A stretch of DNA of 64,000 nt from Pedobacter yonginensis (GTDB lineage Bacteria; Bacteroidota; Bacteroidia; Sphingobacteriales; Sphingobacteriaceae): positions 186,001 to 250,000 of the forward strand of contig NZ_QGNZ01000004.1 in the NCBI RefSeq assembly GCF_003173595.1, given 5' to 3'. Each line of letters opens with the position of its first letter. The stretch's first letter is position 1. The position numbers were made by a program, and so were the translations under genes. Positions 4,682 through 63,560 of the stretch are shown piece by piece. The notes below the pieces were generated by a model, which was not told the origin of the DNA, did no database searches, and was given only the letters and a program-made list of their open reading frames with translations.

Positions 4682-5881
4682 TTAATGTATGCCTACATAC
4701 TCAGATTTTACAACAGAGGGATTGTTTTGTAAAGCTTTTGAACCATTTGTTTTAATTAACCATAATGCAAACATCGACCCAACAAGTGCCATAGCTGCAC
4801 CTACATAAGCAGGAGATGTGTAGTCAAAACCATAAACTAGTGGCAGGCCACCAAAAAATGCACCTAACGCGTTGCCGATGTTAAAACTGGCCTGACTGGC
4901 AGATGCAGCGAGCATTTCTGAGCCTTTTGCAGTTTGGATCATTAACATTTGGATGGGCGCGGCGAGGGCAAATGCAACTGCACCTGTAATGAATGTCATT
5001 ACGAGTGCCAATACCTGATTACCCGAAACAAAGTGTACAATGGTTAAGGTAATCACCATCACAATTAGTAGCGAAGCAGAAGCTTTTGCGGGGGAGTATT
5101 TATCGGCGAGGATTCCACCGATAAAATTACCCACCATCATGCCCAAGCCAGCCAACATTAAAATATAGGTTACATTTGATGCAGAAAAACCTGCAACATC
5201 TGTCATTAGTGGTGCGATATAACTATACCAGGTGAACAATCCGCCTGTGCCAATGGAAATCATGGCGATGATGATCCACGCTTCTTTCTTTTTAAAAAAG
5301 CTGAGTTCTGCTTTTAAATCGCGATTTTTTGTGGCCTCTAGTGCAGGAAGCCATAATTTTAAACTTAATAAAGTAATTAGGCCTACAAGAACGACAACAG
5401 CAAATGAGATTCTCCAAGAAAAATTGTGTCCGATAAATGTTCCTAAAGGTACGCCCACTACGTTTGCAATGGTTAAGCCCATAAACATGAGCGAAACTGC
5501 TTGTGCTTCTTTACCTTTTTTGGCAATGCGACTGGCAACTACAGAACCAACGCCGAAGAATGCGCCATGAGGTAAACCGGAAAGTAACCTGGCGATAAAT
5601 AAGGTATCGAAAGTTGGAGCAAAGGCAGAAAACGCATTAAACACAGTAAACATAACCATAAGGGCAATCAAAATCTTTTTTGGAGGGTATTTCCCAGCGA
5701 TCATGATGAGCAAAGGTGCGCCAATTACCACGCCAAGCGCATAGGCAGATATCAAGTGACCCGCTTGTGGGATGCTTACCTTCAAATCTTTAGCAATATC
5801 AGGAAGTAAGCCCATCATAACAAATTCTGTTATTCCGATGCCTAAACCTCCTAAAGTTAGTGGGATTAAATTTTTATTCAT
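4682..5881 (-). CDS. MFS transporter, AraJ-like (sugar or drug efflux type)
   Basis: A 399-residue inner-membrane protein with about 12 hydrophobic helices, of the major facilitator superfamily. The N-terminus (LTLGGLGIGITEFVMMGLLPDIA) and the loop LLSGLPHGAFFGVGSVVASR are typical of the AraJ/YdhP-like drug:H+ antiporter-1 group, which exports sugars or small toxic compounds. The substrate cannot be read from sequence. ATG at 5881 is chosen over the longer frame (to 5923) because the extra residues do not fit the conserved start MNKNLIPLTLGG. It stands alone, with repeats downstream and a 220-base gap upstream. Confidence 0.88.
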   Translation of the reverse strand: MNKNLIPLTLGGLGIGITEFVMMGLLPDIAKDLKVSIPQAGHLISAYALGVVIGAPLLIMIAGKYPPKKILIALMVMFTVFNAFSAFAPTFDTLFIARLLSGLPHGAFFGVGSVVASRIAKKGKEAQAVSLMFMGLTIANVVGVPLGTFIGHNFSWRISFAVVVLVGLITLLSLKLWLPALEATKNRDLKAELSFFKKKEAWIIIAMISIGTGGLFTWYSYIAPLMTDVAGFSASNVTYILMLAGLGMMVGNFIGGILADKYSPAKASASLLIVMVITLTIVHFVSGNQVLALVMTFITGAVAFALAAPIQMLMIQTAKGSEMLAASASQASFNIGNALGAFFGGLPLVYGFDYTSPAYVGAAMALVGSMFALWLIKTNGSKALQNNPSVVKSEYVGIH

Positions 5882-6097
5882 AGGGATGCTTAGTGTTAAA
5901 AATACACTATGTAAAGGTAACACTTTCTGAGCCCAAGAATTGTAAAATTCAAGCCATTTTGAGAATTGAGATATCTTTGGCTAAATCTGAAGGCCAAGCA
6001 AGATTTATTGGAGGAGCGTTGAGGTGTAGTTCATCTCCATGATAATAATCGTGATGGGTATAGGATGTTTTGGGACGATTGAGTGGGCATGGGGCAT

Positions 6098-6130
6098 AAA
6101 AAAAGCTGTCTCACTTTGTAAGACAGCTTT
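6098..6130 (-). terminator. intrinsic terminator of the sigma-factor operon
   Basis: Perfect 10-bp stem (6102-6111 with 6121-6130) with a 9-base loop. On the minus strand it is followed by seven T. It lies just after the small gene at 6146-6340. Confidence 0.85.
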
Positions 6131-6145
6131 GTAGCTCTTGTAAAA

Positions 6146-6340
6146 TTACTTCGATTTGCTGTAAGCTAAAATCCTATTGATGGTTTCATCTTGAGGATTT
6201 GTTAACAGCCCATCTAACTTACTTTTGATTTGGTCGTAAAATAAGTCGATATCCGCATCAGATTCATTATCAGTTGTTGACTGAAACATGTTTTGGGTTG
6301 GTAAGTTTACATTTGTTTTTGATGTAGAGGTTTTTGTCAT
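6146..6340 (-). CDS. small hydrophilic protein downstream of the ECF sigma factor
   Basis: A 64-residue protein counted from the ATG at 6340; a TTG two codons upstream is also possible. It has a Ser/Thr/Asn-rich first half and a C-terminal amphipathic part (DIDLFYDQIKSKLDGLL...INRILAYSKSK). There is no membrane helix, signal peptide or zinc-binding motif. It lies 87 bases after the sigma-factor gene in the same direction and before a shared terminator. This is where an anti-sigma factor is often found, but the protein does not look like a typical one. No family is recognised. Confidence 0.6.
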   Translation of the reverse strand: MTKTSTSKTNVNLPTQNMFQSTTDNESDADIDLFYDQIKSKLDGLLTNPQDETINRILAYSKSK

Positions 6341-6427
6341 AAGCAACTAAATGTTTTTGTTTTATAAACTTAACGATAGTTGCTATGCTTTATTTCAATC
6401 GCAAAAACATTTTTTGTAACTTTTTTA

Positions 6428-7012
6428 TTACCCCTTGTATGTCATTTCCTTAGTCTTGAGCATTTTGCGCAAGTTGCTCAATGCATAACGCATACGGCCC
6501 AAAGCGGTATTAATGCTTACCTCAGTTAAATCGGCTATTTCTTTAAAGCTTAAATCGGCGTAATGACGCATCAGAAGCACTTCTTTTTGCTCATCAGGCA
6601 ATAAATGAATCATTGCTTTTAAATCTTTATGGGTTTGATCTCGGAGCATTTTTTCTTCTGCACTCTCATCATAAAAGTGTAGCATATTAAATACATCCAT
6701 TCCATCAGAACTCGTAATTATTGGAGTTCTTTTCTCCTTCCTGAAATAGTCGATAACTAAGTTGTGCGCAATACGCATTACCCAAGGTAAGAATTTGCCT
6801 TCCTCGTTATATCTTCCTGATCGCAACGTATTAATTACCTTGATAAAAGCATCCTGAAAAATGTCCTCCGCCAAATATTGGTCTTTAACCAATAAGTAGA
6901 TAGAAGTATAAATTTTGCTTTTATGTCTTCGTAAAAGTTCCTGCAATCCATTCTCGTCACCGGTAATGTATAACTTTACCAGGTCCTGATCATTATATGA
7001 TTGTAAATTCAT
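6428..7012 (-). CDS. RNA polymerase sigma factor, ECF/RpoE type
   Basis: A 194-residue sigma-70 family protein with the two-domain ECF layout. Region 2 (about residues 25-97) includes AEDIFQDAFIKV and FLPWVMRIAHNLVIDYFRKEKR. Region 4 (about 138-187) includes the helix-turn-helix LSFKEIADLTEVSINTALGRMRYALSNLRKML. A small hydrophilic gene follows in the same operon instead of a recognisable anti-sigma factor. The genes it controls cannot be read from the sequence. No TAnnTTTG element was seen directly upstream of its own start. Confidence 0.93.
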   Translation of the reverse strand: MNLQSYNDQDLVKLYITGDENGLQELLRRHKSKIYTSIYLLVKDQYLAEDIFQDAFIKVINTLRSGRYNEEGKFLPWVMRIAHNLVIDYFRKEKRTPIITSSDGMDVFNMLHFYDESAEEKMLRDQTHKDLKAMIHLLPDEQKEVLLMRHYADLSFKEIADLTEVSINTALGRMRYALSNLRKMLKTKEMTYKG

Positions 7013-7205
7013 AGGTTTACCTACACTAAATCCCGTACTATTTGCTAAAAATTAATTTGTAGATGTTTAATTTCTATAGCTGATCTCCTATGTTTTTGAA
7101 TGTTGTTAGTTTGGTTCTGAGGTTGTTAATATTCAAAGAAAGTGTTTTTTTTATCAAAAAACAAAAAATAAAATGTTAAAAAATAAATTAACCGTCTCAG
7201 TACCC

Positions 7206-7213
7206 TATTTTTG
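7206..7213 (+). promoter_or_regulatory. possible -7 promoter element of uvrA
   Basis: TATTTTTG fits TAnnTTTG and lies 57 bases before the uvrA ATG, in a 258-base AT-rich intergenic region. Confidence 0.35.
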
Positions 7214-7270
7214 TATGTTTTTAAAACCCTTGTAAATCACTGGGGTTTATATTTATATTCTTGATAATAC

Positions 7271-10084
7271 ATGAGCAAAAACGAAGCCGAAAAAGATCCG
7301 CATAAAAATATAATCATAAAAGGTGCCCGCGTACATAACCTAAAAAATATTGATGTTGCCATTCCAAAAAATAAATTGGTGGTTATTACTGGCATGTCGG
7401 GTTCGGGTAAATCATCTCTTGCATTCGATACTCTATATGCTGAAGGTCAGCGTCGTTATGTGGAAAGTTTATCGTCTTATGCGCGCCAATTTATGGGGCG
7501 AATGAACAAACCAGATGTAGATTACATTAAAGGTATTGCACCTGCCATTGCGATTGAACAGAAGGTAATTACTTCCAATCCACGATCAACTGTTGGTACT
7601 TCTACAGAAATATACGATTACTTAAAACTTTTATTCTCCCGAATCGGGAAAACGATTTCACCCATCTCAGGAAAAGAAGTTAGAAAAGATTCGGTAAGTA
7701 CGGTTGTTGATTATGTGGGTGCAATGCCCGAAGATACAACGGTTACCATTTTTTGCCCATTATATCCGCATAACAATCGAACAATTAAAGAGGAGCTGGC
7801 CATCTTATTACAGAAAGGTTTTTTAAGGGTTCTGATTGAGAATAAAATTGAGAAAATAGAAACGGTTTTAGATGATTCTGATTTTAAAGATGCTGAATTA
7901 ACTGACGATAAAACGGTTCAAATACTAATCGATCGAATTGTAACTAATAAAGAAGAGGAAACTTTAAGCCGATTGGCGGATTCTACACAAACTGCATTTT
8001 TTGAGGGCAAAGGAGATTGTTATGTTGAAGCTGAAGGGGTTACGAAGCACTTTAGCGATCGGTTTGAATTGGATGGTATGCGCTTTGAAGAGCCTACGCC
8101 AAACTTTTTCTCCTTTAACAATCCATATGGTGCCTGTAAGCGTTGTGAAGGTTATGGAAACGTAATTGGAATTGATGAGGATTTAGTTATCCCAGATAAA
8201 AGCAAAAGTGTTTATGATAATGCCATAGCACCTTGGCGAGGAGAGAAAATGGGCGTTTGGTTGCAGAATTTTATTAAAGCTGCACCAAAATTCGATTTTC
8301 CCATACATAGGGCCTATAGTGCTTTAACGGAGAAGGAACAGCAGTTACTTTGGAGCGGAAATAAATACTTTGTTGGACTAGATGCTTTTTTCAAAGAACT
8401 GGAAGAGCAAACTTACAAAATACAATACCGTGTTATGTTATCGCGCTACCGCGGAAAGACCACTTGCCCAGATTGCAAGGGATCTCGATTGCGCAAGGAT
8501 GCCTCATACGTAAAAATTGCGGAGAAATCTATCATAGATGTGGTGTTGATGCCTTTGGCAAAAGCGTTAATTTTCTTTAATGAGTTGCAACTGAATGAGA
8601 ACGATGCGAAAATAGCTAAGCGATTATTAGCCGAAATTAACAATCGTTTCTTGTATTTGAATAATGTGGGCTTAGGCTACTTAACACTTAATAGATTATC
8701 AAACACGCTATCTGGTGGAGAATCGCAGCGGATTAATCTGGCAACTTCGCTGGGAAGTAGTTTGGTTGGTTCTATTTATGTATTAGATGAGCCTAGTATA
8801 GGCCTGCATCCTCGCGATACCAATAAGCTAATTGAGGTTTTGGTTTCGTTAAGAAATGTAGGAAATACAGTGATTGTGGTAGAGCATGAGGAAGAAATGA
8901 TGCGTGCAGCCGATCACATCATTGATATTGGGCCAGAGGCAGGTACGCATGGTGGTAACTTGGTATTTAGTGGCAATTACGAAGCAATTTTAACAGATAA
9001 AAAGAGCTTAACTGGCAGGTACTTAGCTGGTATAGAGCATATTGCCATCCCAGAAAAACGAAGAAAATGGAAAGACCATATCTTAATAAAAGGCGCTAGG
9101 GAGAATAACCTAAAAAATGTAGATGTGAAGTTTCCTTTAGGGGTTTTCACGGCAGTGAGCGGGGTTTCTGGTTCTGGTAAAACCAGTTTGGTTAAAAAGA
9201 TTTTATATCCGGCTTTGCAAAAGGCCATTGGCAATTACGCTGGGGAACAAACGGGTGCTTATGATGGCATCTTCGGTAATTATGATTTGGTGAGTGCTGT
9301 AGAAATGGTCGATCAAAATCCCATCGGTCGTTCTAGTCGATCTAACCCAGTAACTTATGTTAAAGCCTGGGATGATATTCGTGCATTATTTTCTAATCTA
9401 GCCTCTGCCAAAGCCGCGGGCTTAAAACCTGCTGCGTTTTCTTTTAATGTAGAGGGGGGACGTTGCGATGTTTGCCAAGGTGAAGGAGAGGTTAAAATCG
9501 AAATGCAGTTTATGGCTGATATTTATTTGCCTTGCGAAGCTTGTGGTGGCAAACGCTTTAAACAGCAGGTTTTGGATGTTACCTACAAAGAAAAAAATGT
9601 ATCTGAAATTTTAGACATGACCATTGATGAGGCTGTTGATTTCTTTAAGGATGAACAAAAAATTCTGAATAAATTAAATCCGCTTGTTGATGTTGGTTTG
9701 GGCTATGTGCATTTAGGGCAATCGTCCAATACGCTATCAGGCGGTGAAGCGCAGCGGATTAAATTGGCCTCATTCTTAATTAAAGGGAACAACGCCAACA
9801 AAACGGTGTTCATTTTTGATGAGCCTACAACGGGTTTACACTTTCACGATATTAAGAAGCTCCTTAAAGCTTTAAACACTCTAATTGAGCAAGGCAATAC
9901 CATTTTGGTTATCGAACACAATATGGATATGATAAAATGTGCGGATTGGGTAATTGATATTGGTCCGGAAGGTGGTGATGGGGGCGGTCATGTCGTTTTT
10001 GAAGGCGTTCCAGAAGACCTGGCAAAGGAAAAAAAATCTTACACAGGCAAATATTTAGCAACCCATTTGAATTTTAATCCATAA
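7271..10084 (+). CDS. uvrA: excinuclease ABC subunit A (UvrA) lacking the first zinc-site CxxC
   Basis: UvrA dimers scan DNA for bulky lesions and load UvrB in nucleotide excision repair. The 937 residues carry two ABC ATPase modules: Walker A GMSGSGKS at 41-48 and GVSGSGKT at 631-638, with LSGGESQRINLA and LSGGEAQRIKLA signatures. The second zinc module is complete (Cys732, 735, 755, 758), and a CPDC pair is at 399-402. The first zinc module of classical UvrA needs two CxxC pairs. Only CKRC (289-292) is present, and residues ~260-275 hold FELDGMRFEEP where the other pair should be. It may therefore be one of two UvrA paralogues in this genome. LysE follows after 8 bases. Confidence 0.92.
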   Translation: MSKNEAEKDPHKNIIIKGARVHNLKNIDVAIPKNKLVVITGMSGSGKSSLAFDTLYAEGQRRYVESLSSYARQFMGRMNKPDVDYIKGIAPAIAIEQKVITSNPRSTVGTSTEIYDYLKLLFSRIGKTISPISGKEVRKDSVSTVVDYVGAMPEDTTVTIFCPLYPHNNRTIKEELAILLQKGFLRVLIENKIEKIETVLDDSDFKDAELTDDKTVQILIDRIVTNKEEETLSRLADSTQTAFFEGKGDCYVEAEGVTKHFSDRFELDGMRFEEPTPNFFSFNNPYGACKRCEGYGNVIGIDEDLVIPDKSKSVYDNAIAPWRGEKMGVWLQNFIKAAPKFDFPIHRAYSALTEKEQQLLWSGNKYFVGLDAFFKELEEQTYKIQYRVMLSRYRGKTTCPDCKGSRLRKDASYVKIAEKSIIDVVLMPLAKALIFFNELQLNENDAKIAKRLLAEINNRFLYLNNVGLGYLTLNRLSNTLSGGESQRINLATSLGSSLVGSIYVLDEPSIGLHPRDTNKLIEVLVSLRNVGNTVIVVEHEEEMMRAADHIIDIGPEAGTHGGNLVFSGNYEAILTDKKSLTGRYLAGIEHIAIPEKRRKWKDHILIKGARENNLKNVDVKFPLGVFTAVSGVSGSGKTSLVKKILYPALQKAIGNYAGEQTGAYDGIFGNYDLVSAVEMVDQNPIGRSSRSNPVTYVKAWDDIRALFSNLASAKAAGLKPAAFSFNVEGGRCDVCQGEGEVKIEMQFMADIYLPCEACGGKRFKQQVLDVTYKEKNVSEILDMTIDEAVDFFKDEQKILNKLNPLVDVGLGYVHLGQSSNTLSGGEAQRIKLASFLIKGNNANKTVFIFDEPTTGLHFHDIKKLLKALNTLIEQGNTILVIEHNMDMIKCADWVIDIGPEGGDGGGHVVFEGVPEDLAKEKKSYTGKYLATHLNFNP

Positions 10085-58399: not shown

Positions 58400-59227
58400 T
58401 TATCCTTCACCCAAAAACAGCAAGCATTTCTCGCATACTTTAAATAAAAGTGGGGGTAGGGTTTCATTTTGATAGGGTTGAGTTGCGCCATAAACATGAT
58501 TTGCGCCCTCAATTTTAATCAACCTGCTGTTTGAATTTGCATCGGCTAATTTTTGTGCATGTTCAAACGGAACGTTTACATCATCATCGCCCTGAACAAT
58601 AAGCCAGGGAATATTAATCTGTTTAGCGGCCTTCAAAATATTGAATGTTTCTGCATTATCTTCAAAATCTTGCAGTAAAGTAACGTTTAAAGGCATCTCC
58701 TCTTTAGTCCTGGCATTGGTAACGGAGATTTTCCCTGTCCTCTTCCATTCACTTTCTTGTTCTTTTTTCCAAAGGCTGTTAAAACTCGAAATGGCACTCC
58801 AAGTTATTAATTTGTTGATTCTTACATCGTTAGAGGCCTCTATTATTGCTAATCCGCCTCCTCTACTGTGTCCAATTAAATTTATTTTGGTTTCTTTCCC
58901 GTAGGCTTTTTCGATAAAATCGAGTACAGCATTAACGTCAAAAAGTTCTTTCGAGATGGTATTGCTGGCGAAGGCTTCCATGTCAGTCACATCCTTTGGA
59001 TCATTGGCAGGGACGCCACTGTGCGATAAATTAAATTTAATGTATCGGTAGCCGTTGCTTGCAAAATGCCTTGCTACTAGATTGTGAGCGCCCCAATCTT
59101 TGAAGCCCTTAAAGCCGTGAATGAAAAGGACGATTGGCGTGTTTGGGTTTTTCTCATCAAATGTAATATCGCCTACAATGATTTTTCCATCTGCACCGGT
59201 TAGGCTAAATTCACTTTGTGTAATCAT
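58400..59227 (-). CDS. alpha/beta hydrolase
   Basis: A 275-residue cytoplasmic protein of the alpha/beta-hydrolase fold. The oxyanion loop is in FIHGFKGFKDWG (36-47). The nucleophile elbow GHSRGG has Ser121. The acid is likely in GDDDVNVPF, and the histidine in EGANHVYG. The pattern resembles dienelactone-hydrolase-like or acyl-peptidase-like esterases; the substrate is unknown. It stands alone between the palindromic repeat and the long repeat block. Confidence 0.87.
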   Translation of the reverse strand: MITQSEFSLTGADGKIIVGDITFDEKNPNTPIVLFIHGFKGFKDWGAHNLVARHFASNGYRYIKFNLSHSGVPANDPKDVTDMEAFASNTISKELFDVNAVLDFIEKAYGKETKINLIGHSRGGGLAIIEASNDVRINKLITWSAISSFNSLWKKEQESEWKRTGKISVTNARTKEEMPLNVTLLQDFEDNAETFNILKAAKQINIPWLIVQGDDDVNVPFEHAQKLADANSNSRLIKIEGANHVYGATQPYQNETLPPLLFKVCEKCLLFLGEG

Positions 59228-59332: not shown

Positions 59333-60950
59333 CGATAAAGATTTCGCTCGGCTCGCCGCCGCCGAGGGGTTCGTTCTTTTGACAACAAAAGAAACAAAAT
59401 TGCCAGCTGAAAATTTTTCTATTAAAGTTTGGAGCAGGGCTCGAACGGTGCTTCCCGAAAAATTTGTTAGGCTGGGGATTACGGTAACGGAGAAATAGTG
59501 CTGTGGCCTAGCTGGGTGGAAAAGCTAAACTGAAATTAAGCGCAAATAATGGTTCTGGGTTATGGATACATGCCTTAGGTTTTTTAGCAGCGGCTTGAGT
59601 GCTTCAAACCCGATTGAACGGAAAGCCACAATTTTTCATTGTGCTTGGAGGTAAAGCGGGACTGAAATAACAAAAATGCACAGAACCCTGCTTTCCCAAA
59701 CATTTGTGACTTTAGGAAATAGATTTAGGTGATAGATTTGTCTAAAGATCTTGCTCGGCTCGCCGCCGCCGAAGGGCTCATTCTTTTGACAACAAACCTG
59801 CGAAGCAAGCATGAACGCCAAAAAACAAATAACAGCGCGTGAAAAACACCAAAATTGCCAGCTGAAAATTTTTCTATTAAAGTCTGTAGCAGGGCTCGGA
59901 CGGTGCTTCCCGAAAAATTTGTTAGGCTGGGGATTACGGTAACGGAGAAATAGTGCTCTGGCCTAGCTGGGTGGAGAAGCTAAAGTGAAATTAAGCGCAA
60001 ATAATGGTTTTGGGTTATGGATACATGCCTTAGGTTTTTTTTGCAGCGGCTTGAGTGCTTCAAACCCGATTGAACGGAAAGCCACAATTTTTCATTGTGC
60101 TTGGAGGTAAAGCGGGACTGAAATAACAAAAATGCACAGAACCCTGCTTTCCCAAACATTTGTGACTTTAGGAAATAGATTTAGGTGATAGATTTGTCTA
60201 AAGATCTTGCTCGGCTCGCCGCCGCCGAGGGGCTCGAGTTATGCATCTCGAAAAATTTGTTAGGCTGGGGATTAGTGAAACGTGGATTAAGTGCTCGGGC
60301 TTAACCGGGTGGAGAAGCGCATTGTCCAACCATTTTGTGGCTCAATATCCTATGATTAGTTACTCATTAACCAATTAATGAAACGATTAAGATTTCGCTC
60401 GGCTCGCCGCCGCCGAAGGGCTCGTTCTTTTGACAACAAAAGAACCAAAATTGCCAGCTGAAAATTTTTCTATTAAAGTTTGGAGTAGGGCTCGGACGGT
60501 GCTCCCCGAAAAATTTGTTAGGCTGGGGATTACGGTAACGGAGAAATAGTGCTTTGGCCTAGCTGGGTGAAGAAGCTAAACTGAAATTAAGCGCAAATAA
60601 TGGTTCCGGGTTATGATACATGCCTTAGGTTTGTTAGCAGCGGCTTGAGTGCTTCAAACCCGATTGAACGGAAAGCCACAATTTTTCATTGTGCTTGGAG
60701 GTAAAGCGGGACTGAAATAACAAAAATGCACAGAACCCTGCTTTCCCAAACATTTGTGACTTTAGGAAATATATGCATGTGATAGATTTGTCTAAAGATC
60801 TTGCTTGGCTCGCCGCCGCCGAAGGGCTCGGAAGGTGCATCCCGAAAAATTTGTTAGGCTGGGGATTACTGTGACGGAGAAATAGTGCTTTGGCCTAGCT
60901 GGGTGGAGAAGCGCATGACCCAAACATTTGTGCCTTTAGAAAATAGATTT
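59333..60950. repeat. left block of a long modular repeat (five units)
   Basis: The GC-rich core GCTCGGCTCGCCGCCGCCGA occurs at 59346, 59753, 60209, 60397 and (with one change) 60803, giving unit lengths of 407, 456, 188 and 406 bases and a truncated last unit. Full units hold the same modules in order: the core, a hairpin word GTTCTTTTGACAACAAAAGAAC-like, an AT-rich stretch, AATTTGTTAGGCTGGGGATTA, a module with the CACAAT/ATTGTG hairpin, and AAATAGATTTAGG. The second unit carries an alternative module instead of part of the hairpin word. No real gene was found in this ~1.7-kb gap; the short frames are repeat-borne. Confidence 0.9.
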
Positions 60951-60971: not shown

Positions 60972-61391
60972 TTAATATCCCTTGGTTGGTTGCTTACTAA
61001 CATTAAAGTAAAATTTCTGTTTAGGGTTTTTGAAGTAATACCAGGCCCAACCCATAAAAAGTAGTTGAAAAGGTAACCTAGCCCAGGCAATTAGCGGAGT
61101 AACCAATATTTTTCCGAGCATAAAGGGCGCCATTTGAATCATATAAATATGAGCCGGCATAAAGGCAAGCAGCATTAAAATAATGCATAAAGCAGATTGC
61201 TTTCTGGTTTTTGGAAATAACAATAAAACGCCTAAAATTATTTCTATTACGCCCGATAAATAAATTAAAAATTGGTGTGCGGGCAACCAATTCGGCATTA
61301 TTGCGTAGTACCCTTCAGTAGAGAGAAAGTGATTACAGCCCGCAAGGATGTAGAAAACGGCATAAATGATTAGAAATATTTTATAGGGCAT
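60972..61391 (-). CDS. DoxX-like small membrane protein
   Basis: A 139-residue protein with four hydrophobic helices. FYILAGCNHFLSTEGYYAIMPNWLPAHQFLIYLSGVIEIILGVLLLFPKTRKQSA spans about residues 13-68 and is the DoxX-like layout (helix, loop with NHF, P-x-LP motif, G-x-x-E in helix 2). The biochemical role of this branch is not known; relatives are membrane subunits or partners of redox enzymes. It lies between the left repeat block and the divergent hemA. Confidence 0.82.
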   Translation of the reverse strand: MPYKIFLIIYAVFYILAGCNHFLSTEGYYAIMPNWLPAHQFLIYLSGVIEIILGVLLLFPKTRKQSALCIILMLLAFMPAHIYMIQMAPFMLGKILVTPLIAWARLPFQLLFMGWAWYYFKNPKQKFYFNVSKQPTKGY

Positions 61392-61518: not shown

Positions 61519-62745
61519 TTGGAATATTTAAAAGTAATCGCTTTTACACATCACCACATCGACCTAAAATCTTTAGGGAAGTTAGTTATTTGTGATGAAA
61601 GTTTGGACAACAGATTGAAGAATATTCAAACCGTGTTACCTGTTAGCGAGATTTTTTACATTGGTACCTGTAACCGTGTAGAGTTCGTTTTCCTTACCAA
61701 AGAAAAAACAGATAAAGAATTTGTAACCAAGTTTCTTACCGTTTTGGACATGGGCTTACCTCCAGAATTTATGGAGCGTTTCTTAGAAAACGTAACCGTT
61801 TACGAAAACGAAGAGGCTTTTAATCACCTACTCAGAACATCTTGCTCTTTAGAAAGTTTAGTTGTTGGCGAGAAAGAAATTTTAGCTCAAATACGTAAAG
61901 CTTACGAAAATTGTAGAGATGCGGGTTTTACTGGCGATTACATGCGTATGATTATGGATAGGGTGGTGAAAACGGCTAAAGAAGTTTATACGCACACCAA
62001 TATCTCAAAAAATCCAGTTTCTGTTGTTTCTTTGGCTTATCGCAAACTCAAAGAATTAAACATGTGTGGTAACTCACGCATTTTAATTATTGGTGCAGGA
62101 GAAACCAATCAAAACATTGCAAAATACCTCAACAAGCATAAATATTCTAACTTCTCAATCTTTAATCGTACACTCTCTAAAGCAGAGAGCCTTGCTAGCG
62201 AATTGAATGGAAAAGCCTATCCGTTAGAAGCCTTGGAAAACTTTAACGAGGGTTTTGATGTAATCATCACTTGTACAGGGTCTACAGAGCCTATTATTAC
62301 TGAAGCGCTCTACGCTAAATTGCTTCATGGCGATACAGGCAAAAAGGTAATTGTTGATTTAGCCATTCCGAACGATGTAGCACCCGCGGTTGTTCACAAT
62401 AATCCAATCCATTATATTGAGGTAGAATCGCTCAAAGAAGTTGCCCGGAAAAACATTCAGGAGCGTTACAACGAACTCGTTCATGCTGAAGACATTATCA
62501 GCGCAAACATCACCGAGTTTTTTACCGTACTCAAACAGCGTCGAATTGAATTGGCCATGCAAGATGTACCCAGAAAGATTAAAGAAATCAAAAATACAGC
62601 TATAAATGGTGTATTTGCAGAAGAAATTAGTCAGATGGATGAAGCCTCTCGCGAAGTGTTAGAACGTGTAATGAACTACATGGAGAAAAAATACATCAGC
62701 GTTCCAATGATTATGGCCAAAGAGATTTTGGTAAAGCAATCTTAG
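61519..62745 (+). CDS. hemA: glutamyl-tRNA reductase
   Basis: HemA reduces glutamyl-tRNA-Glu to glutamate-1-semialdehyde, the first step of C5-pathway haem synthesis. The 408 residues contain the catalytic Cys51 in GTCNRVEF, SLVVGEKEILAQIRKAYE, and the NADPH-binding stretch ILIIGAGETNQNIAKYL. The C-terminal dimerisation helix region includes ISANITEFFTVLKQRR. The start is TTG at 61519, with no ATG giving the conserved N-terminus (LKVIAFTHHHIDLKSLG). In relatives hemA is typically close to hemC; here about 1 kb of repeat DNA lies between them. Confidence 0.97.
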   Translation: MEYLKVIAFTHHHIDLKSLGKLVICDESLDNRLKNIQTVLPVSEIFYIGTCNRVEFVFLTKEKTDKEFVTKFLTVLDMGLPPEFMERFLENVTVYENEEAFNHLLRTSCSLESLVVGEKEILAQIRKAYENCRDAGFTGDYMRMIMDRVVKTAKEVYTHTNISKNPVSVVSLAYRKLKELNMCGNSRILIIGAGETNQNIAKYLNKHKYSNFSIFNRTLSKAESLASELNGKAYPLEALENFNEGFDVIITCTGSTEPIITEALYAKLLHGDTGKKVIVDLAIPNDVAPAVVHNNPIHYIEVESLKEVARKNIQERYNELVHAEDIISANITEFFTVLKQRRIELAMQDVPRKIKEIKNTAINGVFAEEISQMDEASREVLERVMNYMEKKYISVPMIMAKEILVKQS

Positions 62746-62829: not shown

Positions 62830-63560
62830 GCAGGTTTCTGTGCTTTTTTGTTATTACAGTCCCGCTTTACCTCCAAACACAATGAAAAATTGTGGCTTTC
62901 CGTTCAATCGGGTTTGAAACACTCAAGCCGGTGCCAACAAAGCTAAAACCCGTATCCATAACCCGGAAGCATTATTTGCCCGTAGTTCCGGTTTTTGCTT
63001 TTCCACGCAGCCAGGTCACAGTGCTATATTTTATTTACAGAAATCAAGTTTGGTGTTTTTCACGTGCTGCTATTTGTTTTTGGCGTTCAAGCTTGCTTCG
63101 CAGGTTTGTTGTCAAAAGAACGAGCCCTTCGGCGGCGGCGAGCCGAGCAAGATCTTTAGACAAATCTATCACCTAAATCTATTTCCTAAAGTCACAAATG
63201 TTTGGGAAAGCAGGGTTCTGTGCATTTTTGTTATTTCAGTCCCGCTTTACCTCCAAGCACAATGAAAAATTGTGGCTTTCCGTTCAATCGGGTTTGAAGC
63301 ACTCAAGCCGCTGCTAACAAACCTAAAGCCTGTATCCATAACCAGAAGCATTATTTGCGCTTAGTTTCAGTTTTGCTTCTCCACCCAGCTAGGCCAGAGC
63401 ACTATTTCTCCGTTACCGTAATCCCCAGCCTAACAAATTTTTCGGGAAGCACCGTCCGAGCCCTACTCCAAACTTTAATAGAAAAATTTTCAGCTGGCAA
63501 TTTTGGTTCTTTTGTTGTCAAAAGAACGAGCCCTTTCGGCGGCGGCGAGCCGAGAGAGAT
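62830..63560. repeat. right block of the long modular repeat, inverted
   Basis: About 730 bases of the same repeat family as 59333-60950, in opposite orientation: the GC-rich core appears as its complement near 63130-63148 and 63536-63556, again about 407 bases apart. One unit carries the alternative module seen in left unit 2 (complement of the stretch near 59784-59855). The two blocks bracket DoxX and hemA as inverted repeats. Short frames here are repeat-borne and not called as genes. Confidence 0.9.

What the first reader, a model, noticed from the sequence alone, without database searches (positions are those of the whole stretch)
59346..60950. Modular repeat: fixed GC-rich core with modules gained, lost and swapped
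Units of 407, 456, 188 and 406 bases share the core GCTCGGCTCGCCGCCGCCGA but differ by whole modules. One unit lacks the central module, another has an alternative module that is also present in the inverted right block. A near-perfect hairpin (GTTCTTTTG/CAAAAGAAC) follows the core, and a second (CACAAT/ATTGTG) lies in the central module. The GC-rich core in an AT-rich genome stands out. This is more like a mosaic of cassettes than simple tandem duplication.
Basis: seen in the sequence. Interest (0 to 1): 0.6.

Follow-up and report, generated by a model that had tools for sequence, protein, structure and literature searches.

The report
Piled-up structured mobile repeats around hemA
The puzzling modular repeat is a local pile-up of two kinds of short, folded, genome-hopping DNA repeats (the known but unexplained Flavo-1 motif and a second family that is not in Rfam) on both sides of a haem-synthesis gene; it matters mainly because it gives a testable lead on what Flavo-1 is.

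Summary
In detail: cores at 59346, 59753, 60209, 60397 and 60803 give spacings of 407, 456, 188 and 406, with two inverted copies right of hemA. The modules belong to two separate, dispersed repeat families. Module A (about 185 nt: GC-rich head hairpin = the "core", AT hairpin with a covarying loop pseudoknot, long second stem) is found in 77 of 147 genomes of the genus (Pedobacter, judged from named relatives), up to dozens per genome, and in weaker form in nine of 22 genera sampled in the order. It has no Rfam match. Module B is Flavo-1 (RF01705), found in 90 of 147 genomes. Flavo-1 in opposite orientations flanks hemA in related species; A was added in this genome.

In relatives A is the body of a roughly 295-bp element without a gene, inserted at one fixed position inside REP palindromes; an empty sister REP lies beside a filled one. 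Short units in the window look like deletions between AGGGCTCG repeats. So "mosaic" is right, but there is no evidence of cassette machinery. A is not coding, shows no clear strand bias towards neighbouring genes and no G-U excess, so a function as RNA is unproven. The mobilising enzyme is unknown: TnpB, IS110 and RAYT were tested without support.

The parts
59345..59514 (+). Module A copy 1 (full)
   Evidence: R1 covariance model 159.6 bits
59602..59703 (+). Flavo-1-like module B copy 1
   Evidence: CCCGATTGAACGG at 59609, ACCCTGCTTT ends 59694; same sequence as the scored copy 3
59752..59969 (+). Module A copy 2, with the alternative internal module (about 59791-59852) in place of the 3' arm of the first AT hairpin
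   Evidence: R1 143.8 bits; module coordinates; unit alignment
60058..60159 (+). Flavo-1-like module B copy 2
   Evidence: profile match; motif at 60065
60208..60307 (+). Module A copy 3, internally deleted; no Flavo-1 follows
   Evidence: R1 39.4 bits; unit alignment
60396..60565 (+). Module A copy 4 (full)
   Evidence: R1 165.4 bits
60652..60744 (+). Flavo-1-like module B copy 3
   Evidence: RF01705 33.6 bits, E 7e-6, below the gathering score of 42
60802..60901 (+). Module A copy 5, internally deleted, consistent with loss between AGGGCTCG repeats
   Evidence: R1 43.6 bits; repeats at 60417/60487 in copy 4 and a single one at 60823
63386..63556 (-). Module A, right array, full
   Evidence: R1 167.2 bits
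63196..63307 (-). Flavo-1-like module B, right array, inner copy
   Evidence: profile match at L194:3178-3289
63008..63149 (-). Module A head (63105-63150) followed by the alternative module (63052-63104), right array
   Evidence: R1 31.1 bits
62816..62936 (-). Flavo-1-like module B, right array, copy next to hemA
   Evidence: profile match at L194:2798-2918
61519..62745 (+). hemA (glutamyl-tRNA reductase), between the two inverted arrays
   Evidence: Pfam GlutR_N, Shikimate_DH, GlutR_dimer

Best explanation
The locus is a pile-up of two families of short, structured, intergenic repeats without genes of their own. Module A (new, about 185 nt) is the body of a non-autonomous mobile element. In related species a roughly 295-bp form of it has recently multiplied by insertion at one fixed position inside REP palindromes. 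Module B is Flavo-1. Flavo-1 copies in opposite orientation were already on both sides of hemA in the ancestors. In this genome A became joined to Flavo-1; the A+Flavo-1 unit was duplicated in tandem; units were shortened by deletion between short direct repeats; and left and right arrays were kept alike by recombination between the inverted copies. Shown: the module identity, the dispersal, the base-pair covariation, the REP insertion with an empty site, and the older Flavo-1 at hemA. Inferred: the order of events here, the inverted-repeat homogenisation, an enzyme acting in trans, and that the folded form matters as DNA during movement rather than as an RNA.
For: A: 77/147 genomes of the genus, 15 matches in the own genome at two loci, 23-32 copies in some relatives, 59 right ends in one 5.1-Mb genome, many close to contig ends. 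Structure: H2 and H3 paired in 97.8% of cells, 35 double changes against 7.3 shuffled; pseudoknot pairs all covary, and across genera 3.30 bp against 2.29 shuffled, 0/1000. Mobility: about 18 near-identical copies in G139 with unrelated outer flanks; element of 294 nt (291-305) between CTG-AG and AG-NN of a REP in the 13 parsed rows (L152 and L221 are the same insertion); REP halves at most of 30 right ends inspected; a filled REP next to an empty sister REP and empty REPs in the same spacer of relatives. Flavo-1: RF01705 match, 90/147 genomes, '+' upstream and '-' downstream of hemA in relatives. Deletion repeats and shared alternative module. Left/right arms 96-98% alike.
Against: No insertion junction or REP target is seen in the window itself, and the A end known from G139 is absent from this genome (0 matches), so how A arrived here is inferred. 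The mobilising enzyme was not found. Flavo-1 at hemA keeps position and orientation in about 20 of 30 genomes, which could mean a local function rather than a relic. The conserved unpaired stretch AACGGAG suggests a role for the A body that mobility alone does not explain.
Confidence: 0.8

Rival explanations
1. The arrays are functional RNAs (cis-acting or small RNAs), for example controlling hemA/hemC.
For: Strong covariation including a pseudoknot. Flavo-1 is filed in Rfam as an sRNA and keeps position and orientation at hemA in many species.
Against: A lies between genes without clear strand preference (tandem spacers: 15 sense, 11 antisense; 16 convergent, 4 divergent). G-U pairs are no commoner than A-C mismatches (4:8, 19:12, 4:14), which does not look like one-strand RNA. 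In F. psychrophilum Flavo-1 hits were indifferent to strand and many were outside transcripts (PMC9723704). MFE z-scores of the window copies are only about -1.
Confidence: 0.2
2. Plain tandem duplication with a few deletions; the mosaic is only apparent.
For: Units 3 and 5 fit deletions between AGGGCTCG repeats; much of the remaining sequence is 90-96% alike between units.
Against: A and Flavo-1 occur separately in many genomes; the alternative module is shared only by unit 2 and the right array.
Confidence: 0.12
3. A is a non-autonomous IS110/IS1111-type element and its structured stretch is a bridge RNA/seekRNA.
For: REP target, CT (AG) dinucleotide at both junctions, subterminal ATTGACGTT/AACGTCAAT a few bp from one end, as in IS621/IS1111 (PMC11208160, PMC11187229).
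Against: The other inverted repeat is about 30 bp from its end, not 6-7. IS110 transposase (PF02371) gave no match in A-rich genomes G109, G114, G119 and G048, and in the 30 IS110 loci examined only one had an A copy in its flank, as a separate REP insertion. Loops of A are conserved, not variable guides; matches to target or donor are short.
Confidence: 0.07
4. A is mobilised by a Y1 transposase (IS200/RAYT type) as a REP-like passenger.
For: Y1 genes in 73 of 77 A-genomes against 10 of 70 others; 22 of 24 against 9 of 67 outside the window's clade. No long target duplication; palindromic ends.
Against: RAYT and IS200-like genes carry other REPs next to them; no A in the 30 Y1 loci and 20 Y1/RAYT regions examined. 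Co-occurrence may be shared ancestry; four A-genomes lack a hit.
Confidence: 0.2
5. A is a conserved short protein-coding repeat.
For: One frame (PAENFS..PEKFVRPDLSRTEI) is open in 29 of 47 distinct copies.
Against: No codon-position signal (0.181, 0.163, 0.162) and stops in 18 of 47.
Confidence: 0.02

Closest known systems
Flavo-1 RNA motif (RF01705, Weinberg et al. 2010, PMC2864571)
   Same: Module B aligns to it over its whole length; multi-copy in Bacteroidetes
   Different: Window copies fall below the gathering score (33.6 against 42); module A does not match it
Pneumococcal BOX elements (boxA-boxB(n)-boxC) with RUP and SPRITE (PMC3049150)
   Same: Short, gene-less, interspersed, strongly folded, composed of modules in varying number and combination; different families cluster and insert into each other
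   Different: No sequence relation shown; A ends lack the terminal inverted repeats and target duplications reported for BOX; a REP is the target
REP palindromes as IS targets (Tobes and Pareja 2006, PMC1525189) and IS621/IS110 (PMC11208160)
   Same: Insertion at one point inside a REP palindrome with a CT dinucleotide at both junctions
   Different: About 295 bp, no transposase, subterminal repeats not at the IS1111 distances
STAXI motif (PMC2864571)
   Same: Pseudoknots repeated in tandem, proposed there to act as single-stranded DNA
   Different: Not linked to DNA-handling genes here; not compared at sequence level

Membership tests
Flavo-1 (RF01705) | Covariance-model match over the full model | tested here: met
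   Positions 1-76 of 76, E 7e-6 for a 171-base stretch
Flavo-1 (RF01705) | Score at or above Rfam's gathering score | tested here: not met
   33.6 against 42 bits; a Flavo-1 copy at the same hemA locus in G044 reaches 49.5. Filed as Flavo-1-like
Any Rfam family (module A) | Match in Rfam 15 | tested here: not met
   No match on A
MITE / BOX-like small interspersed repeat | Short, gene-less, multi-copy, intergenic | tested here: met
MITE / BOX-like small interspersed repeat | Precise insertion shown by an empty site | tested here: met
   in G139, not in the window
MITE / BOX-like small interspersed repeat | Terminal inverted repeats shared with a resident transposon | tested here: not met
   Inverted repeat is subterminal and asymmetric; no autonomous partner found
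IS110/IS1111 | DEDD transposase in or next to the element | tested here: not met
IS110/IS1111 | Subterminal inverted repeats 7 and 3 bp from the ends (IS1111 group) | tested here: not met
   A few bp at one end, about 30 bp at the other (element printed)
IS110/IS1111 | Guide loops complementary to target and donor | tested here: inconclusive
   Best target match 8 nt, reached in 23 of 500 shuffles
TnpB omega-RNA element | TnpB-type nuclease in the genome | tested here: not met
   No PF07282 match over cut-off in 16 genomes; IscB not tested
RAYT/REP system | Repeat flanks the cognate transposase gene | tested here: not met
Integron cassette array | Integrase, attC sites and genes between them | not tested
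   No gene lies inside any unit; no search for integrases was made

The most novel reading that the evidence does not exclude
Module A and Flavo-1 belong to a class of Bacteroidetes mobile elements without genes whose conserved fold (including a pseudoknot) is used as single-stranded DNA by an enzyme acting in trans, with loops of older palindromes as landing sites; Flavo-1 would then be a mobile DNA structure, not an sRNA.
Probability: 0.25. Interest if true: 0.72.

Novelty: new variant of a known kind. Interest (0 to 1): 0.5.

Why it matters
Flavo-1 was described in 2010 and still has no function that I know of. Here a second structured family not in Rfam, with a well supported fold, is caught moving into REP palindromes and is found fused to Flavo-1. 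This makes it directly testable whether such "RNA motifs" of Bacteroidetes are mobile DNA structures. It also supplies a covariance model for intergenic repeats that no Rfam family covers, and it may explain broken assemblies (many contig ends in genome G132 lie in this element).

Tried and rejected
Coding potential: no codon periodicity, 18 of 47 copies with stops. Omega-RNA of TnpB: TnpB not found over cut-off. Bridge RNA/seekRNA: see rivals. RAYT/IS200: co-occurs but is not adjacent. Plasmids and phages: no match. Exact core in genome contigs: 52 stretches, most in GC-rich bacteria and probably chance, two in Pedobacter. Autonomous partner with the same ends: the end pattern found nothing but A elements. 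tRNA control for G-U content: only one tRNA in the held loci, so no control was made. A Flavo-1 alignment for a G-U test was made but not pursued; the copies are too unlike.

Full report
Observation. The core and its spacings are as reported, and the core occurs nowhere else in this genome at up to two mismatches. The unit alignment and repeat search show three nearly full units (59346, 59753, 60397), two shortened ones (60209, 60803), and an inverted pair right of hemA (core at 63536-63555 in a full unit, 63129-63148 in one carrying the alternative module). Arms on the two sides of hemA are 96% alike over 415 nt and 98% over 267 nt. Flanking genes: an alpha/beta hydrolase (58400-59227, -), a DoxX-like gene (60972-61391, -), hemA (61519-62745, +), and then, by reading the sequence, hemC.

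Two families, not one. A DNA search of the genus with one stretch of the array (72 of 147 genomes match) split it. One part (window about 60397-60580, "module A") matches mostly at 74-81% identity. Another (about 60650-60755, "module B") matches at other loci with up to 92% identity. The record titles of two exact-core hits (L037, L055) name Pedobacter. Module B is Flavo-1-like: full-length match to RF01705 with 33.6 bits, E 7e-6 on a short stretch, below the gathering score; the Flavo-1 copy at the same spacer of genome G044 scores 49.5.

Module A. A covariance model (R1) from 41 copies finds 15 matches in this genome: seven here, and eight in a second tandem array (C11:383864-386361, period 313) that shares the head and first hairpin but has another body. 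In the genus 77 of 147 genomes match. In a sample of the order, nine of 22 genera match, with lower scores outside the genus, and single genomes hold up to 32 matches. No Rfam family matches A. The structure is well supported. The first AT hairpin and the long stem are paired in 97.8% of cells, with 35 double changes against 7.3 in shuffles and 1-3 in slid controls. The loop of the hairpin pairs with three bases downstream, and all three pairs covary, one with all four Watson-Crick types. Among 37 distinct loops from several genera the longest loop-partner match averages 3.30 against 2.29 when partners are shuffled, 0 of 1000, although a few lineages do not show it.

Mobility. In genome G139 about eighteen nearly identical copies lie in unrelated surroundings, many at contig ends. 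They share a body of about 294 nt between a left flank, GTCAT(C/T)CTG-AG, and AG followed by the other half of a REP palindrome. Downstream of hemA in G139 a filled REP stands beside a tandem empty copy of the same REP, and relatives have the empty REP in the same spacer. The right-end pattern occurs 59 times in G132 and 23 times in G139 but never in this genome. All 30 right ends inspected belong to A, one of them cut off by a contig end, and most are followed by a REP half.

History at hemA. Among 30 hemA loci, about 20 carry Flavo-1 on the + strand upstream and eight on the - strand downstream; apart from a partial match in G080, A occurs only here and in G132 and G139. So inverted Flavo-1 copies are older than the A units. 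My reading, inferred, is that A joined Flavo-1 here, that the unit was then duplicated in tandem, and that the inverted homology allowed exchange across hemA. Units 3 and 5 fit deletions between AGGGCTCG repeats; the alternative module is shared by unit 2 and the right array.

What it does. A lies between genes: of the spacers whose neighbours could be called, 16 were convergent, 4 divergent, 15 tandem-sense and 11 tandem-antisense, against 28 convergent, 49 divergent and 95 tandem spacers without an element (gene calls by a simple open-frame rule). That is avoidance of promoter regions with no clear strand bias. G-U pairs are about as frequent as A-C mismatches, unlike what one expects of a one-strand RNA. 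A published Flavobacterium transcriptome found Flavo-1 indifferent to strand (PMC9723704). I therefore prefer a mobile, structured DNA repeat, without excluding RNA functions. The A copies tested are not coding.

The enzyme. TnpB is not found. IS110 transposase is missing in several A-rich genomes; where A lies near such a gene it is a separate REP insertion. Y1 transposases co-occur strongly (73/77 against 10/70) but RAYT genes bear other REPs and no A nearby. The question is open.

Known or new. The kind is known: modular, gene-less, folded repeats such as pneumococcal BOX, which cluster and insert into one another (PMC3049150), and REPs as insertion targets (PMC1525189). Family A with its pseudoknot, its REP-targeted insertion and its fusion to Flavo-1 is new as far as the searches made here can show.

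Noticed in passing
L145 (G000:C11:379000-391000), 4865-7362, minus strand: Second tandem array in the same genome: eight copies, period 313 bp, near a dnaK-like gene; same head hairpin and a 6-bp loop pairing (CTTGAT/ATCAAG) but a different body.
   Followed up: partly
L188 1501-1596 and L097 5890-5988: REP-like palindromes (GTCATCCTGAGCGTAGTCGAAG, GTCTTCGACAGGCTCAC) sit in the terminal loop of Flavo-1 copies, so REPs, Flavo-1 and A appear nested in one another.
   Followed up: no
Genome G132 (e.g. L337, L345, L349, L355): Many contig ends lie about 110-160 bp from the right end of the A element, which seems to have broken the assembly.
   Followed up: no
L226-L235, L317: An IS200-like TnpA gene keeps its place upstream of an acyltransferase-like gene (product MSKLFGYILSP..) in many species of the genus, with its own GTTCCGTAGGAAC repeats.
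   Followed up: no
L340, L344, L351, L352, L356, L082: Long forms of A with about 45 extra bases between the pseudoknot and the long stem in several genomes, comparable to the alternative module of window unit 2.
   Followed up: no
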